The notes under the pieces were generated by a model that was not told the DNA's origin, searched no databases, and was given only the letters and a program-made list of their open reading frames with translations. A program made the translations under genes and the position numbers. A stretch of 22,498 nucleotides of DNA from a virus: IMG/VR virus record IMGVR_UViG_3300020171_000459, positions 1 through 22,498 of that record. The stretch is one strand, 5' to 3'. Of the stretch, positions 1 to 22,498 are shown piece by piece. Each line of letters begins with the position of its first letter. The stretch's first letter is position 1.

Positions 1-483
1 TTCATCAAGATATTTGTATAATCTATTTTGAATTTCAGGATTATCCCCACTGACATAAACTCTATTCCCAACTTTCCAACCTTCTGCTAAATATTGTCCA
101 TAAATCCAAAGTTTTCGTGGATCTGCAAATGGAATATCTAATTCAGGAAGTTTTTTGATACATAAAATCTGTCTTTCATACCATTTAGTTAAATCAAAGT
201 CACAAAGTTTCTGTTCTATTACTCCCTTATCTTTAGTTACTTTCCATTTGAAAAATTTATGTTCAGGAGTGCAAATAAATGAAGTTCCGTTTCTAACCTT
301 GACTTTCACTACTTCTTTCTTTCCTTTGTTCCACCAATTTAAAATGGGTTTAAACTCTAATCTGTTTTCTTTAAAGTTATAAGAAAGTGCCTGTATATCT
401 TTAAAGTTTTGTAAGTCTTTTATTTTCTTAATTGAATATCTATTATTCTCAAGGCAAATTATTTTTGTATCACCTGCAAAGCA
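1..483 (-). other. Intein N-terminal splicing domain plus start of LAGLIDADG endonuclease (partial)
   Basis: The intein begins at Cys157 of the host frame (codon 483-481). Block A is CFAGDTKI: Cys1 nucleophile followed by the usual Gly-Asp-Thr. Block B is TPEHKFF at residues 228-234, with the Thr-x-x-His that activates the N-terminal splice bond. About 50 residues later, IYGQYLAEG (283-291) matches the first LAGLIDADG helix (block C) of homing endonucleases, with a hydrophobic lead and the YLAEG ending. The second LAGLIDADG helix and blocks F and G are beyond the edge. The insertion point directly follows Asp-Asp and coincides with the predicted catalytic Cys, so after splicing the +1 Cys of the C-extein would become the catalytic residue. 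Confidence 0.9.
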
Positions 484-951
484 ATCGTCTTTCTTTAAAG
501 CCCAAGTTTCAGTCGGCTGCATCCAGCACTCATTAAAGCCAAATTGGTTCTGATCTGTTTCATAAGTCAGTTTTGGAGCTAAGAACTTACAGATGTCTAA
601 AAAGAGATTGTCGTATCTCTCTCGCATTGTTTCGCCTTGGTACTTATCTAAATATAAGTTGTTATCTTTCAGAACCTTTTGAAAGACGCAGTTTCTTGGC
701 TCAATAAAAGTTCTGACATCAAAATCAGGTTTAACTCCTTTAATTTCTCTGCCTTTGTAAGTAATGTCAGCAGTAGGATATTTTGAGTATTCAGTTTTAA
801 ACCATTCAGGTATTTCAGTTTCCATTTTTCCACGCAAATTAAAGTTCTCTAACATTTGAGTTGCAAGCTGGGAATTAACATTCTTGAACTTGTTTTGAAG
901 CTCCAAGTAGTCTGGACAGAAAAGTTTTGTAATGAAATCAAACCAACTCAT
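1..951 (-). CDS. Transglutaminase-like cysteine peptidase, N-terminal part, interrupted by an intein (runs off window)
   Basis: An open frame of 317 codons runs from ATG at 951 to the window edge without a stop. Residues 1-156 are the N-extein. Its end resembles bacterial and phage transglutaminase-like cysteine peptidases: Tyr-Glu-Thr-Asp (130-133), then ECWMQPTETWALKKDDC (141-157), which fits the family pattern W-x-x-P-x-E-T...GDCED around the catalytic Cys. From Cys157 the protein becomes an intein (separate entry). The catalytic His and Asp would lie in the C-extein, outside the window. The start overlaps the upstream stop as ATGA. Coming after the tail hub, the product could be a tail-associated peptidase or a virion/host modifying enzyme; the substrate is unknown. 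The family call rests on the short motif and is moderate; the intein call is stronger. Confidence 0.65.
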   Translation of the reverse strand, partial: MSWFDFITKLFCPDYLELQNKFKNVNSQLATQMLENFNLRGKMETEIPEWFKTEYSKYPTADITYKGREIKGVKPDFDVRTFIEPRNCVFQKVLKDNNLYLDKYQGETMRERYDNLFLDICKFLAPKLTYETDQNQFGFNECWMQPTETWALKKDDCFAGDTKIICLENNRYSIKKIKDLQNFKDIQALSYNFKENRLEFKPILNWWNKGKKEVVKVKVRNGTSFICTPEHKFFKWKVTKDKGVIEQKLCDFDLTKWYERQILCIKKLPELDIPFADPRKLWIYGQYLAEGWKVGNRVYVSGDNPEIQNRLYKYLDE

Positions 952-14743: not shown

Positions 14744-17629
14744 TTATGGTGCTGATGTTGTGCTTGATATTCTCAGCGAACAAGACACATTACTGCACGC
14801 CTGACTTCCATTGTTTGAAGCGACTGCTCTTACAGTAACTTTGTCCCCAGCATTTAATGATATTGGATTTGCTACTGTGTTTACTGTCGTATCTGCTCCA
14901 GCCAGTTGCATAGTCATTGCTTCTGCTCCAGCATTCTTCATTATAGTGAAGTCAACAGTTTCTCCTGCTGCTGGTGCTATTCCTGCGGATGCATACATTG
15001 CAACTATTGTGCATGCTTCTGGTGCTACATAGACTAAAGTTTCTGCTGCCTGCCATGATCCTGCATCTGGTGCTATATATCTTGTATTCCCTGCACCCAA
15101 AACTGCTGGGCCTGTCATACTTATTGTATAATAAGATGTGTGTGTATGTGCCGCAATGTCAACGCCGTCAACAGTTCCGCCCACAGTTAAGTTTCCAGAC
15201 ATATTGATTGTTGTTACGCCTGTGACTGCTCCTGCTGTTGTGCTGAAATTGCCATCAGTCAAAGTTGTGCCAGTTATTACACCTGCATCAGTTACAGACC
15301 AAGAAGTTCCTGACATTCCGCCTGTGTTAGTTATTGCACCTGCTCCTGCGACCAGACCGACACAATTTACTGCACCCACCCCACTTACAATAAAAGTTGG
15401 TGTGCTTATCAATCGTGTCCATGCCTGAGTTGCATCTATTTGTATTGCATAGGTTGTTCCTGCTGTGCCTGCTCCGTTGCTGTCAATGTAGATTGCTCTT
15501 GATGTAGAACCCACGTTTGCTCCCTGCGCATCTAACAAACAAGCAACTATCTGATTTGTATGCACTCCTGTTTCTGCGGTTACATCCAAGTCAAGATTTG
15601 CCAAAGCTGTATCTGCATCTGCTGTGTCTATATCAAAGTTTAGAGCACCTGCATTTGCGAAACTTGTTGTTGATACGAATTGTGCTGTTGTCAATACGCC
15701 TGCTTTTGTCAGACTAAAGTTGTTTGCAATGATTGAATTTCCTGTTGAGCCATTCATAGTTATGTTCAATCCATCGCCTGCAACTACTGCTGCTCCCATG
15801 TCTATTGCAATTCCGTGGCCTGCTGTGGCTGTTGCGCTTCTTGTTACATCAATTAGGTTAGCTGCTGTTGCACCAGTTGGTGTCACATCTACTAATCCAT
15901 TAAATGTAGCCAATGCAGAAAATGTTGCTGTTCCAGTTGCACCTGTTGTTACAATTGCTCCGTTTGCTGTAAATGCACTGCCTGTTGCACCGCCCATTAC
16001 AACTGATATTGCATTGCCTGCAACTACTGCTGCACCCATCGCTATTGCCAAACCATCTCCTGCGGTTGCAGTTGCTGATCTGGTTAAGTCAATTAGGTTA
16101 GCTGCTGTTGCGCCTGCTGGTGCTATGTCAACAAATCCGTTTAGAGTAGTTACACCTGCAATAGTCAAAGCTCCTGTGCCTGTTGTAGAAAATGCTCCTG
16201 TTGTTGTGATATTTCCGTCTGCCTGCAAAGCGTAACCTGTAGCTCCCCCCATGACAATGTTAATTGCATTGCCACCTACTACTGCCGCACCCATAGCAAT
16301 ATCTATTGCATTTCCAGCTGTTGCAGTTGCGCTTCTTGTAATGTCAAGAAGATCTCCTGCTGTTGCTCCGGTTGGTGTTATATCCACGAATCCTGCTGTG
16401 CTGATTATACCTACCCCGTTGGCAATACTTACACAACCAGATAATGCTCCTGCTGTGGTTGTAAAAGTTCCATCAGTAAGTGTTGCACCAGTAACAGTTC
16501 CTGCACCTGCATTAACACCCACACAGATTATAGCTCCTGTTGCACCTGTTATAGACCACAATGTTCCTGATACATCATTTCCGCCTGCCAATAAAGCATT
16601 TGTAATGTTTGCGTCAGAACCATTGAAAGCTGTGACTATTCCGTTAGCCATTGCTCCTGAACAAGTTGCAGAGAAAGCATCTGTTATTGCCATCGTTGCG
16701 TCTGTGTTGTCTACTAAGATACCCACGTCTAATAGTTGTGTAGCTGCTGCGTTCTGCAAGACAGTCAAACCTCTAATCACACCTGCGTTAGATGAAGTCA
16801 TGTTAATTATGACTGCATCAACTGCGCCTGTATGGCCAGAGCTTGTTATCTCTAATCTCTCAGCTGCGACGAAATCCATATCCACATTTGCTGTGAATGT
16901 GATTGCGCCTGGTACACTAATTGCTCCACTTGGAAAGTCAAAAGTTCCTGTTGATGCTGACATATCAAAGTCATAAGAACCTGCTGCCCAGACTAAGTCT
17001 GATGCCATTTTAGCAGTTGCGACTATTGTATCAGTTATTGCATTTCCAAGAACTGTGTTTCCGTTTGCTGTTAGAGTTCCGCCAATAGTTGCGTTTGCAA
17101 TCGTTGTGAAAGCTCCGTTGACCTCAACTTCCTTCTCAAACACTGCATTCTCATCAAAAGTTGGTGTTGCTAATATAGTTAGTGTGTCTATTGCAGCGTC
17201 TCCCAAAGTCATGCTTCCGTTGAATACGGTTGCACCATTGAAAGTTGCTGTGCCTGTAAATGTTGAAGAACCTCCAACTGACAAATCTCCACCAGTCAAA
17301 ACTATATTGCCTGCTGCACTTGTGTAAGTTGCTGTTGCTGTGATTGCACCTGTTACATTTAACACTCCTCCTAAAGTAGTTGCTCCTGTTCCGACAGTTA
17401 ATGTCTTTATTCCAGGAATACTTGTGTTTCCTGCAAGAGTTACTGCTCCTGTAGGTGTGGTAAATGTGCCAGAACCTGACCAGGCAAATGTTGGGTTTCC
17501 TGATGTTGTTGTGTTTCCGTAAAAGGTTTGAGTGTCTCCAGCTGCGTCACCATATTGTCCAGTTCCTGTATTGACAAATGAAGTAACAGTATCTGAAGCT
17601 GTGCCCATTCCTCGTTTCATGTTTCCCAT
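14744..17629 (-). CDS. Large repetitive head-fibre-like protein, 961 aa
   Basis: Very Ala/Thr/Gly/Val-rich. Residues 1-230 have short hydrophobic-Gly-Thr repeats (AVTLAGNTSIPGIKTLTVGT; GVLNVTGAITATATYTSA) like phage fibre shafts or beta-solenoids. Residues about 413-655 hold three tandem copies of a roughly 80-residue unit beginning G(F/L)VDxxPxGATA and containing TRSATATAG and MGAAVV. At about 830 is AAHTHTSYYT, a His-x-His motif as in metal-coordinated fibre tips, followed by a 125-residue beta-rich C-terminal domain, probably the distal knob. SD GGAGGTAAGAAT precedes the start. The gene follows the capsid protein directly, so a capsid-attached fibre is inferred; a tail fibre is the alternative. 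Confidence 0.85.
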   Translation of the reverse strand: MGNMKRGMGTASDTVTSFVNTGTGQYGDAAGDTQTFYGNTTTSGNPTFAWSGSGTFTTPTGAVTLAGNTSIPGIKTLTVGTGATTLGGVLNVTGAITATATYTSAAGNIVLTGGDLSVGGSSTFTGTATFNGATVFNGSMTLGDAAIDTLTILATPTFDENAVFEKEVEVNGAFTTIANATIGGTLTANGNTVLGNAITDTIVATAKMASDLVWAAGSYDFDMSASTGTFDFPSGAISVPGAITFTANVDMDFVAAERLEITSSGHTGAVDAVIINMTSSNAGVIRGLTVLQNAAATQLLDVGILVDNTDATMAITDAFSATCSGAMANGIVTAFNGSDANITNALLAGGNDVSGTLWSITGATGAIICVGVNAGAGTVTGATLTDGTFTTTAGALSGCVSIANGVGIISTAGFVDITPTGATAGDLLDITRSATATAGNAIDIAMGAAVVGGNAINIVMGGATGYALQADGNITTTGAFSTTGTGALTIAGVTTLNGFVDIAPAGATAANLIDLTRSATATAGDGLAIAMGAAVVAGNAISVVMGGATGSAFTANGAIVTTGATGTATFSALATFNGLVDVTPTGATAANLIDVTRSATATAGHGIAIDMGAAVVAGDGLNITMNGSTGNSIIANNFSLTKAGVLTTAQFVSTTSFANAGALNFDIDTADADTALANLDLDVTAETGVHTNQIVACLLDAQGANVGSTSRAIYIDSNGAGTAGTTYAIQIDATQAWTRLISTPTFIVSGVGAVNCVGLVAGAGAITNTGGMSGTSWSVTDAGVITGTTLTDGNFSTTAGAVTGVTTINMSGNLTVGGTVDGVDIAAHTHTSYYTISMTGPAVLGAGNTRYIAPDAGSWQAAETLVYVAPEACTIVAMYASAGIAPAAGETVDFTIMKNAGAEAMTMQLAGADTTVNTVANPISLNAGDKVTVRAVASNNGSQACSNVSCSLRISSTTSAP
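15660..16393 (-). repeat. Three tandem coding repeats of 240-255 bp in the fibre gene
   Basis: Copies begin at 16393, 16138 and 15898 at the codons for Gly-(Phe/Leu)-Val-Asp. Spacings are 255 and 240 bases, both multiples of three. Copies 2 and 3 share an exact run of more than 20 bases in the segment coding for AAxLIDxTRSA. The third copy is the most divergent at its end (NGSTGNSIIANNFSLTKAG). The repeats keep frame, so unequal recombination could lengthen or shorten the fibre without breaking it. Confidence 0.85.
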
Positions 17630-20075: not shown

Positions 20076-20323
20076 GATTTATTTCCTCTTGAGTGCTTTT
20101 CTACTCCGTTCAATTTGAATTGTCTGATTACTTTGTCATCTGTAATGTGATGAGTGCAACTTGTATCTTCTGTGTGATATTCGTAAAGTCCGAAACCTGT
20201 CTTGTCAGTCCTGTCTAAAGTCATAAACTGATTTTGAATTGTTGAAATGTTATCTTCTACAAAGTCTGTTATGCCTCTTGCAACCGGCATCATTGTCCCT
20301 TTTTTAGTCCAAAATGCATTCAT
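20069..20323 (-). CDS. Hypothetical protein, 84 aa
   Basis: The start at ATG 20323 (MNAFWTKKGTMMPVARG) overlaps the portal-MuF stop as ATGA; further upstream in-frame ATGs would lie inside the portal gene. Sequence is mixed and polar, with DFVEDNISTIQNQFMTLDRT in the middle and His-rich DTSCTHHITDDKV near 57-69. No membrane segment or known motif. It could be a small head-assembly protein; this is inferred from position only. Confidence 0.65.
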   Translation of the reverse strand: MNAFWTKKGTMMPVARGITDFVEDNISTIQNQFMTLDRTDKTGFGLYEYHTEDTSCTHHITDDKVIRQFKLNGVEKHSRGNKSW

Positions 20324-22128
20324 ACTGGTCTCCATGAGCAGCGGCAATTTGTATGGGCTGGAATTAAACCCTTTGCTTGAATAATATTAAATGTCTGTCC
20401 ATTCAAATCGTAACAAACATGACCTTTCTTATCATTTCTGCTATCTATTGTTGCATCCCATTTAACTTCTTCTATTCCCTGTTGCTGTAATCTCAATAAA
20501 CTTCCTTCATTTGCTATTCGTATGGATTCTGTGCGTGCAATCATTTTTGCTCTTTCTTTGTCATTATCTATAAGTGGAGCTATTTCATTTGAAATGCTTG
20601 AAATGCTTAATCCTTCTGTAAATGCTCTTGAGAATATGTCTCTTAGCTTTTTAACTATTGACTTTGCAATGTCTTTAATCTCGTTGAAATTGTATGCTTG
20701 GATAAATTTTAAAAAGAAGTCTTTTGTATCTAAGTAAACTGTCTTGTCAGACCAGCCTATCCATTCTTCTAAGTTGTCTATTTTGTCTAATTCTTCCTTG
20801 CTTAGTTCTTTGTGTAATAAAGGTTGAAATGCAGGTTGTTCAGGTTTGTATTCCCCGCTTAGTTCATCCGGTGAGTATCCAAGCTTCTTCTGTGCTAATT
20901 CTTTGGTAATTAGTCCAGCTTGATATTGAGCTATGTATTTCTGTGTCTCTGCATTTGTGTCTTTGTAATCAAAATCGTTAAAACAGATTTCTACCTGATC
21001 TGTGGTTAATTTGTATTGCGCTAAGAACTCAGAGAAAATATATTTGTTTAACTGCCTGAGTATAATGTCTTGATTGTATTTGATGTCCGGCTTGAGAAGG
21101 TCTAAAAGTGCTTGTGAAGAAGCATAGTTTACTTCTGTGGCCTGTCCCATAAGAATCTTAGGAACTCCAATACCCATTAAAATTCCTTGCATGCCTACTT
21201 CTTGATACTCTGGAAGCAAAGAAGATTTTGAGTTGTCATCCACCATTCCTATATTTATACTGCTGTCATGAACAAACTCTATTTTATTATTCATGTCAGT
21301 AAAGTCTGCACTTATTCTATCCATAACTTCTTTAGGTATATGCTTTGAACTTGGATCATCTTTATTTCCTATTGTAACATCATACTTTGGAAAGCCTTTG
21401 CGATAAATGAAATTCCCAGTTCCCTCTTGAATGTTCTCAAAGATAGTTAGTTCTCGCCAAAGCGGCTCTACTACTCCAATTCCATAAATTCCAGTTGGTG
21501 ATTCATTAAGCCTAAAGTAAATTATATCATCAATTCCAAGCTCTATAAATTGTCCGTTGGTTACTTCCTGATAAAAGTTTGAAATATTTCCATACTCATC
21601 ATGCTCTATTACTACCGAACATGGATCTATAAGCGCTATTGAACTGATTTGTCCCATTCCGTCTCTGACTATCTCAGCAAAGCAGTTTCCAAAGATTTGT
21701 AGTTGCCTTGCAATGTTTTCTGTCTTGAAATTTAAATTCAGTTTCTCCACGAACCTGTAAAAGTTGTCTTCCACTAAAGGAAGGTCAGTTTCTATTTTTA
21801 GTCCAGGTGAAGCCACTAATTGAGCCTTCTTGTTAATTGCTGTAAATAAGAGTGAGTTATGAGTATAGACTTTTAACATTCCTTTAAACTGATTTCGCTT
21901 TGAATCTACCTGAAAGTATTTAGATTCTTTGCCTATTGTAATCTGACTCTTTCTTTCGTTGAATAAATATTTGCTTCCAAAGGTCTGATCTGACTTCTCA
22001 AGAAAAATAGTTTCTTCTGGTATTTCATCACAAAGTCTGTTAACTGGCTTTGCTTCATGCTTTTTTGAAGAATAAGTCGGTTTAAATTCCTTCGCTTTAA
22101 ACACATTAAGTAAATCAGAGACTTTCAA
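20320..22128 (-). CDS. Portal protein fused to MuF-like C-terminal domain, 602 aa
   Basis: Residues about 60-440 are a phage portal: NSLLFTAINKKAQLVASPGL, FGNCFAEIVRDGMGQISSIA, LIDPCSVVIEHDEYGNI, DDIIYFRLNESPTGIYGIGV and GIGVPKILMGQATEVNYASS follow the portal order (wing, clip, stem, crown). Residues about 490-602 match Mu gpF-like minor head proteins: MIARTESIRIANEGSLLRLQ, GIEEVKWDATID, and the ending IPAHTNCRCSW with the family's H-x-N-C-R-C. The fusion joins two proteins normally encoded side by side. The frame opens without an ATG; TTG at 22128 is the likely start with only a weak SD, so the first residues are uncertain; GTG at codon 8 is an alternative. Confidence 0.9.
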   Translation of the reverse strand: MKVSDLLNVFKAKEFKPTYSSKKHEAKPVNRLCDEIPEETIFLEKSDQTFGSKYLFNERKSQITIGKESKYFQVDSKRNQFKGMLKVYTHNSLLFTAINKKAQLVASPGLKIETDLPLVEDNFYRFVEKLNLNFKTENIARQLQIFGNCFAEIVRDGMGQISSIALIDPCSVVIEHDEYGNISNFYQEVTNGQFIELGIDDIIYFRLNESPTGIYGIGVVEPLWRELTIFENIQEGTGNFIYRKGFPKYDVTIGNKDDPSSKHIPKEVMDRISADFTDMNNKIEFVHDSSINIGMVDDNSKSSLLPEYQEVGMQGILMGIGVPKILMGQATEVNYASSQALLDLLKPDIKYNQDIILRQLNKYIFSEFLAQYKLTTDQVEICFNDFDYKDTNAETQKYIAQYQAGLITKELAQKKLGYSPDELSGEYKPEQPAFQPLLHKELSKEELDKIDNLEEWIGWSDKTVYLDTKDFFLKFIQAYNFNEIKDIAKSIVKKLRDIFSRAFTEGLSISSISNEIAPLIDNDKERAKMIARTESIRIANEGSLLRLQQQGIEEVKWDATIDSRNDKKGHVCYDLNGQTFNIIQAKGLIPAHTNCRCSWRPV

Positions 22129-22182: not shown

Positions 22183-22389
22183 CTATTGTTTTAAAATCTC
22201 AGCAGCTCCACATTCCTTGCAAAGAGTTCTGTTCTTTTCTTCTGGTAAGAAATAACTCAAAAATGGTTTAACCTTCAAATGCTTTCTTTCTGTCTTTTTC
22301 CAAGGAATGTTCTCTTGCTTCTCTGGTCTGTTTGCTTGGAATCTGTAACAAAGTCCTGTTATTTCCTTATTGCACTTGTCGCATTTCAT
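22183..22389 (-). CDS. Small zinc-finger-like protein, 68 aa
   Basis: Two Cys pairs, CDKC (3-6) and CKEC (57-60), with a basic middle region (WKKTERKHLKVKPFLSYF), suggest a zinc-binding nucleic-acid or protein-interaction domain. The start overlaps the terminase stop as ATGA and it ends with TAG. Placed between large terminase and portal, it could aid packaging; function is not assignable from sequence alone. Confidence 0.75.
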   Translation of the reverse strand: MKCDKCNKEITGLCYRFQANRPEKQENIPWKKTERKHLKVKPFLSYFLPEEKNRTLCKECGAAEILKQ

Positions 22390-22498
22390 CTTCTTCTCAC
22401 CGAATAACTTGGATTAAACTCTCCTATTCCTAATCCCATGCAAGCTAACCCTAAAGCCATTACACAATTATGAACTAAAATATAATTAGCAAAGTATT
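22386..22498 (-). CDS. terL: Large terminase subunit, C-terminal end, interrupted by an intein (partial)
   Basis: The frame enters from the window edge and ends at TGA 22388-22386. Its last 36 residues read YFANYILVHN, then CVMALGLACMGLGIGEFNPS and YSVRRR. The first ten are an intein C-terminus. The C-extein CVMALGLACMG fits the segment right after the nuclease motif III of large terminases (HDD-hydrophobic-x-x-ALALA). Being directly upstream of the portal supports TerL. The product would be the ATPase/nuclease motor that packages DNA; splicing would be needed to rebuild the Asp-Asp metal site region. Identification rests on a short fragment plus gene order. Confidence 0.7.
   Translation of the reverse strand, partial: YFANYILVHNCVMALGLACMGLGIGEFNPSYSVRRR
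22467..22498 (-). other. Intein C-terminal splice junction (partial)
   Basis: The residues FANYILVHN followed by Cys match intein block G: hydrophobic strand, penultimate His, terminal Asn, then a +1 Cys nucleophile in the extein. The Asn codon is 22469-22467 and the +1 Cys codon 22466-22464. Only ten intein residues are in the window, so class and endonuclease content are unknown. Confidence 0.8.

What the first reader, a model, noticed from the sequence alone, without database searches (positions are those of the whole stretch)
22386..22498. Second intein in the large terminase, directly at nuclease motif III
The edge fragment reads FANYILVHN then CVMALGLACMG. The first part is an intein end, the second is what follows the Asp-Asp of terminase nuclease motif III. 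Splicing would restore the catalytic region. TerL inteins are known, but here the downstream junction is within 2.1 kb of the cluster's other packaging genes and splits a metal-binding motif.
Basis: partly seen in the sequence, partly recalled or inferred. Interest (0 to 1): 0.7.

Follow-up and report, generated by a model that had tools for sequence, protein, structure and literature searches.

The report
Intein at viral packaging enzyme's nuclease
The edge of this virus contig holds the last ten amino acids of a self-removing protein insert (an intein) sitting directly behind the catalytic aspartates of the DNA-packaging enzyme, a spot that has been invaded several times in unrelated phages, so it is a real but not unprecedented feature.

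Summary
The minus-strand frame at the contig edge (22496-22389) reads YFANYILVHN|CVMALGLACMGLGIGEFNPSYSVRRR and stops at 22388-22386. The first ten residues are a canonical intein C-terminus: among 546,689 six-frame 20-mers, only real intein ends scored as high. The rest is the end of a large terminase (TerL): all 32 viral contigs found with CVMALGLA(C/W) carry (H/T)DD, the motif III aspartates, directly before that Cys. The window is the whole record, so its own upstream half cannot be read; relatives supply it. Contig L040 has a full-length TerL reading GAHDD|286-aa intein ending EYFANNILVHN|CVIALAV, and its 69%-identical relative L061 reads GAHDDLVIALAV uninterrupted. Five other phages or contigs have inteins at the same codon boundary; Mic1, TJE1 and Highwayman have them one to four codons downstream. 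Side result: all six large (270-327 aa) inteins at or near this site in relatives hide an HNH endonuclease in another reading frame. Whether the window's intein does so is unknown.

The parts
22467..22498 (-). C-terminal end of an intein in TerL (block G, YFANYILVHN, terminal His-Asn), running off the contig edge
   Evidence: Translation; profile score matched only by real inteins among 546,689 20-mers; 9 of 10 residues identical to the L040 TerL intein end YFANNILVHN
22386..22466 (-). C-extein of the large terminase: Cys+1 and the helix that follows motif III Asp-Asp, CVMALGLACMGLGIGEFNPSYSVRRR, stop at 22388-22386
   Evidence: 32 of 32 viral contigs with CVMALGLA(C/W) have (H/T)DD directly before this Cys in a TerL C-terminus
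22183..22389 (-). 68-aa zinc-ribbon-like ORF overlapping the TerL stop by ATGA
   Evidence: ORF list; weak Zn_ribbon_8 match; overlap seen in sequence
20320..22128 (-). portal protein fused to a MuF-like minor head domain, the expected downstream neighbour of TerL
   Evidence: PF04860 E 9.6e-15 and PF04233 E 3.9e-11; phrog_2662 portal E 3.7e-29
1..483 (-). other, separate intein: N-terminal half (CFAGDT..., start of a LAGLIDADG-like endonuclease) running off the opposite contig edge
   Evidence: TIGR01445 intein_Nterm E 4.8e-14 beginning at residue 157; PF14890 E 1.7e-11
484..951 (-). 156-aa N-extein of that other intein, ending ALKKDD before the intein Cys; family not identified
   Evidence: No significant family match; no tblastn match in phages at E 10

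Best explanation
The edge fragment is the C-terminal junction of an intein inserted into the nuclease domain of this virus's large terminase, between the two motif III aspartates (...HDD) and the Cys that follows them. The TerL gene is translated as a precursor. The intein's first residue attacks the upstream peptide bond, the chain is passed to Cys+1, the intein's terminal Asn cyclises to release the intein, and the exteins are ligated to ...HDDCVMALGLACMG..., restoring the helix behind the two metal-binding aspartates. Until splicing, the nuclease site and packing of the motor subunit should be disrupted, so DNA cutting and packaging would depend on splicing. Shown: the C-end of the intein, Cys+1, the TerL C-extein and the gene order. 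Inferred from relatives: the HDD, the intein body, in-cis splicing and homing.
For: Canonical block G with His-Asn then Cys, as distinctive as known intein ends. The C-extein matches TerL behind motif III in 32 of 32 contigs. L040 encodes a complete TerL (PF04466 Terminase_3 E 1.4e-32, Hint_2 E 6.5e-9) with HDD|286-aa intein|CVIALA and 9 of the 10 last intein residues identical to the window. Its relative L061, 69% identical, lacks the intein and reads GAHDDLVIALAV. The same codon boundary carries inteins in L059/L072, vir335, ctRVW222, MT838676 and Rhodobacteraceae phage OP947163. TerL sits directly upstream of the portal, as in Mic1, TJE1, Highwayman and vir335.
Against: Only 10 intein residues are present. 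Blocks A, B and F, the HDD and the TerL ATPase domain of this genome lie beyond the record. No other contig of this virus was found. Splicing is not tested.
Confidence: 0.93

Rival explanations
1. A split intein: the TerL C-terminal piece is encoded as a short separate gene that begins with a C-intein and is joined to the TerL N-terminal piece by trans-splicing.
For: The frame runs off the edge after 10 intein codons, so a nearby start codon upstream cannot be excluded.
Against: All nine complete inteins at or near motif III found here are contiguous with both TerL parts.
Confidence: 0.08
2. No intein: a diverged terminase in which motif III has changed from HDD to VHN, so the fragment is simply the TerL C-terminus.
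For: The frame is continuous and TerL-like; the letters before Cys align without a gap.
Against: All 32 intein-free TerLs with this C-extein keep DD before the Cys, and these aspartates are catalytic (established knowledge of TerL nucleases). The ten residues score as real intein ends do and match the L040 intein end in 9 of 10 positions.
Confidence: 0.03
3. The two contig edges belong to one gene: the intein half at 483-1 and the intein end at the other edge are the same intein in one interrupted gene of a circular genome.
For: Both edges lie in inteins on the same strand, and both insertion sites have, or are expected to have, Asp-Asp before a Cys.
Against: The left N-extein is only 156 aa and matches no terminase model, whereas the right C-extein is TerL-type. 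A direct join is out of frame (left frame ends at base 1, right frame starts at 22496) and no shared stretch of 10 bases or more was found between the edges.
Confidence: 0.04

Closest known systems
TerL motif III intein of contig L040 (IMGVR_UViG_3300028176_000018)
   Same: Insertion at HDD|C, Cys+1, intein end EYFANNILVHN, hydrophobic helix CVIALAV behind it
   Different: Different virus; Terminase_3-type TerL with a longer C-terminal tail; complete intein of 286 aa with an out-of-frame HNH gene
Microcystis phage Mic1 TerL nuclease-domain intein (PMC7156551, MN013189)
   Same: Published TerL with an intein inside motif III, Cys+1
   Different: Junction one codon further downstream (DHL|CDALRY), mini-intein of 146 aa, plus a second intein in the ATPase domain
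TerL inteins of vir335 (BK063680), ctRVW222 (MW202478) and Rhodobacteraceae phage LS06-2018-MD07 (OP947163)
   Same: Intein at the same codon boundary, behind DH/NH of motif III
   Different: DALRY-like motif III; vir335 and ctRVW222 have mini-inteins (132-133 aa); the Rhodobacteraceae phage has Ser+1
Mycobacteriophage TerL inteins (PMC5050341)
   Same: Inteins in large terminase, some shown to splice and to cut intein-free alleles
   Different: All seven sites reported there lie in the ATPase domain, none in the nuclease domain

Membership tests
Intein (Hint-type protein splicing element) | Block G: hydrophobic residues, terminal His-Asn, then Cys/Ser/Thr+1 | tested here: met
   ILVHN|C at 22467/22466; score reached only by real inteins
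Intein (Hint-type protein splicing element) | Block A nucleophile and block B TxxH in the N-terminal part | not testable with these tools
   The record ends 32 bases into the intein and no relative of the same virus was found
Intein (Hint-type protein splicing element) | Intein-free homologues continue seamlessly across the site | tested here: met
   32 intein-free TerLs with (H/T)DD|CVMALGLA; L061 versus L040. Tested on relatives, not on this virus
Intein (Hint-type protein splicing element) | Excises itself and ligates the exteins | not tested
   Needs expression of the precursor
Large terminase subunit (TerL) | Characteristic helix that follows nuclease motif III | tested here: met
   CVMALGLACMG; every contig found with this string is a TerL with (H/T)DD before it
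Large terminase subunit (TerL) | Walker A and B ATPase motifs, nuclease motifs I and II, and the Asp-Asp itself | not testable with these tools
   Beyond the edge of the record
Large terminase subunit (TerL) | Gene position just upstream of portal and head genes | tested here: met
   Portal-MuF at 22128-20320, protease-like protein and major capsid protein next

The most novel reading that the evidence does not exclude
The missing body of the window's TerL intein, like all six large inteins found here at or near motif III, carries an HNH homing endonuclease in another reading frame inside the intein. TerL motif III would then be a recurrent landing site for inteins that hide their mobility gene out of frame.
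Probability: 0.4. Interest if true: 0.5.

Novelty: new member of a known kind. Interest (0 to 1): 0.3.

Why it matters
It adds a case to a pattern that the literature read here does not spell out: mycobacteriophage TerL inteins are described only in the ATPase domain, yet motif III of the nuclease is hit at the same codon boundary in unrelated phages and an archaeal virus. Placing an intein right behind the two catalytic aspartates ties both DNA cutting and motor assembly to splicing, which makes these precursors good material for testing whether splicing gates packaging. The fragment itself is too short to study, so the value lies in the site comparison.

Tried and rejected
Searches for the same virus or a close relative by portal, major capsid and left-edge protein in viral contigs and by portal in genome contigs found none. 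A genome-contig scan for VHN-C-V-M-A-L gave no match. The pattern with Ser/Thr/Cys+1 and VMAL gave only chance matches. Most hits of the VHN-C-V pattern were DNA-polymerase inteins (VHNCVQALAR), not TerL. An AlphaFold model of the left-edge protein had mean pLDDT 37 and was not used. I considered calling the left N-extein transglutaminase-like from memory of its DD-Cys context, but family searches gave no support, so it stays unidentified. The TerL half of the profile script used some generic motif strings of my own, so its TerL score is not used as evidence. The Pacc40 methylase insert hit by the L040 intein turned out to be an ordinary in-frame LAGLIDADG-like intein.

Full report
What was checked. 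The window is a complete virus record of 22,498 bases, so nothing upstream of the edge exists in it. On the minus strand, bases 22496-22389 read YFANYILVHNCVMALGLACMGLGIGEFNPSYSVRRR and the frame stops at TGA 22388-22386. The TGA overlaps the ATG of the next ORF, which fits a true gene end. The frame is open at the contig edge.

The first ten residues are an intein end. A profile made from 15 intein C-ends found here, not including the window, was slid along 546,689 20-mers from six-frame translations of the window and other loci. Only seven reached the window's score: the window itself and six DNA-polymerase intein ends that had contributed to the profile. All other sequences within four bits of the window also look like intein ends.

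The remaining 26 residues are the end of a large terminase. A degenerate DNA pattern for CVMALGLA(C/W) found 32 viral contigs. In every one the Cys is directly preceded by HDD or TDD in a TerL-like C-terminus. The window has VHN there instead, as expected if an intein ends at that point. Downstream lie a small zinc-ribbon-like ORF and a portal-MuF fusion (PF04860, PF04233), the normal neighbours of TerL.

The missing half is seen in relatives. A pattern for VHN-C-V found contig L040, whose 847-aa TerL has Terminase_3 (E 1.4e-32) and Hint_2 (E 6.5e-9) matches and reads GAEPGAHDD|CFVKGT...EYFANNILVHN|CVIALAV, an insert of 286 aa. Its relative L061 (69% identity) reads GAEPGAHDDLVIALAV with no insert. 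L059/L072 has KHDD|CVAGDT...HNFIANGIVVHN|CIDTM and a further intein in its P-loop. In the annotated phage collection, vir335 (host given as Methanomassiliicoccales), ctRVW222, MT838676 and Rhodobacteraceae phage OP947163 have inteins at the same codon boundary of DH/NH-type motif III. Mic1 and TJE1 have them one codon downstream and Highwayman four.

Mechanism. The best reading is standard protein splicing of a TerL precursor, restoring HDD-CVMALGLA. Shown: the C-terminal junction with Asn and Cys+1. Inferred: the N-terminal junction, splicing in cis and homing. Because the junction is right behind both aspartates, the motif III pair stays in the N-extein; what is interrupted is its connection to the following helix. 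Kelley et al. [quoted passage not shown] the passages read do not mention motif III. TerL inteins are also reported in crAss-like phages (PMC7886860). The site comparison here is therefore useful, but the window is one more member of a known kind.

Side result. In all six large inteins at or near motif III (L040, L072, OP947163, Highwayman, TJE1, MT838676; 270-327 aa) a second reading frame (+2) of the intein encodes an HNH protein (PF13392, E between 2.9e-15 and 2.3e-13). The three small ones (vir335, ctRVW222, Mic1; 132-146 aa) have none. In L040 and OP947163 the nested ORF has a Shine-Dalgarno-like sequence before its ATG. Out-of-frame HNH genes were recently described in phage methylase inserts without recognisable splicing domains (PMC11855218). 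I found no paper in the library on such genes inside inteins, which is weak evidence because the library is incomplete.

Noticed in passing
window 1-951, minus strand: The opposite contig edge also ends inside an intein (block A CFAGDT, LAGLIDADG-like start IYGQYLAEG) in an unidentified protein, again inserted between Asp-Asp and Cys (ALKKDD|C). Both contig ends lying in inteins may mean that assembly broke on repeated or polymorphic intein sequence.
   Followed up: partly
L040:531-1058 (-); inteins in L072, L063, L064, L065, L068: All six large TerL motif III inteins contain an HNH_3 endonuclease gene in the +2 frame of the intein, nested within the splicing ORF.
   Followed up: yes
L035, L037, L041-L044, L046-L052: DNA-polymerase inteins ending GPFIVHN|CVQALAR carry a 216-235-codon open frame in the +1 frame with a conserved GGRGIxVCxxW...NCxW pattern that looks like another hidden endonuclease; Pfam gave no significant match in the two tested.
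   Followed up: partly
L072 (IMGVR_UViG_3300000234_000005): One TerL with two inteins, one inside the P-loop (GLGK|intein|STLLE) and one at motif III.
   Followed up: partly
window 14744-17629, minus strand: 961-aa repetitive protein (repeats like DITPTGATAxNLIDVTRSATATAG) encoded just downstream of the major capsid gene.
   Followed up: no
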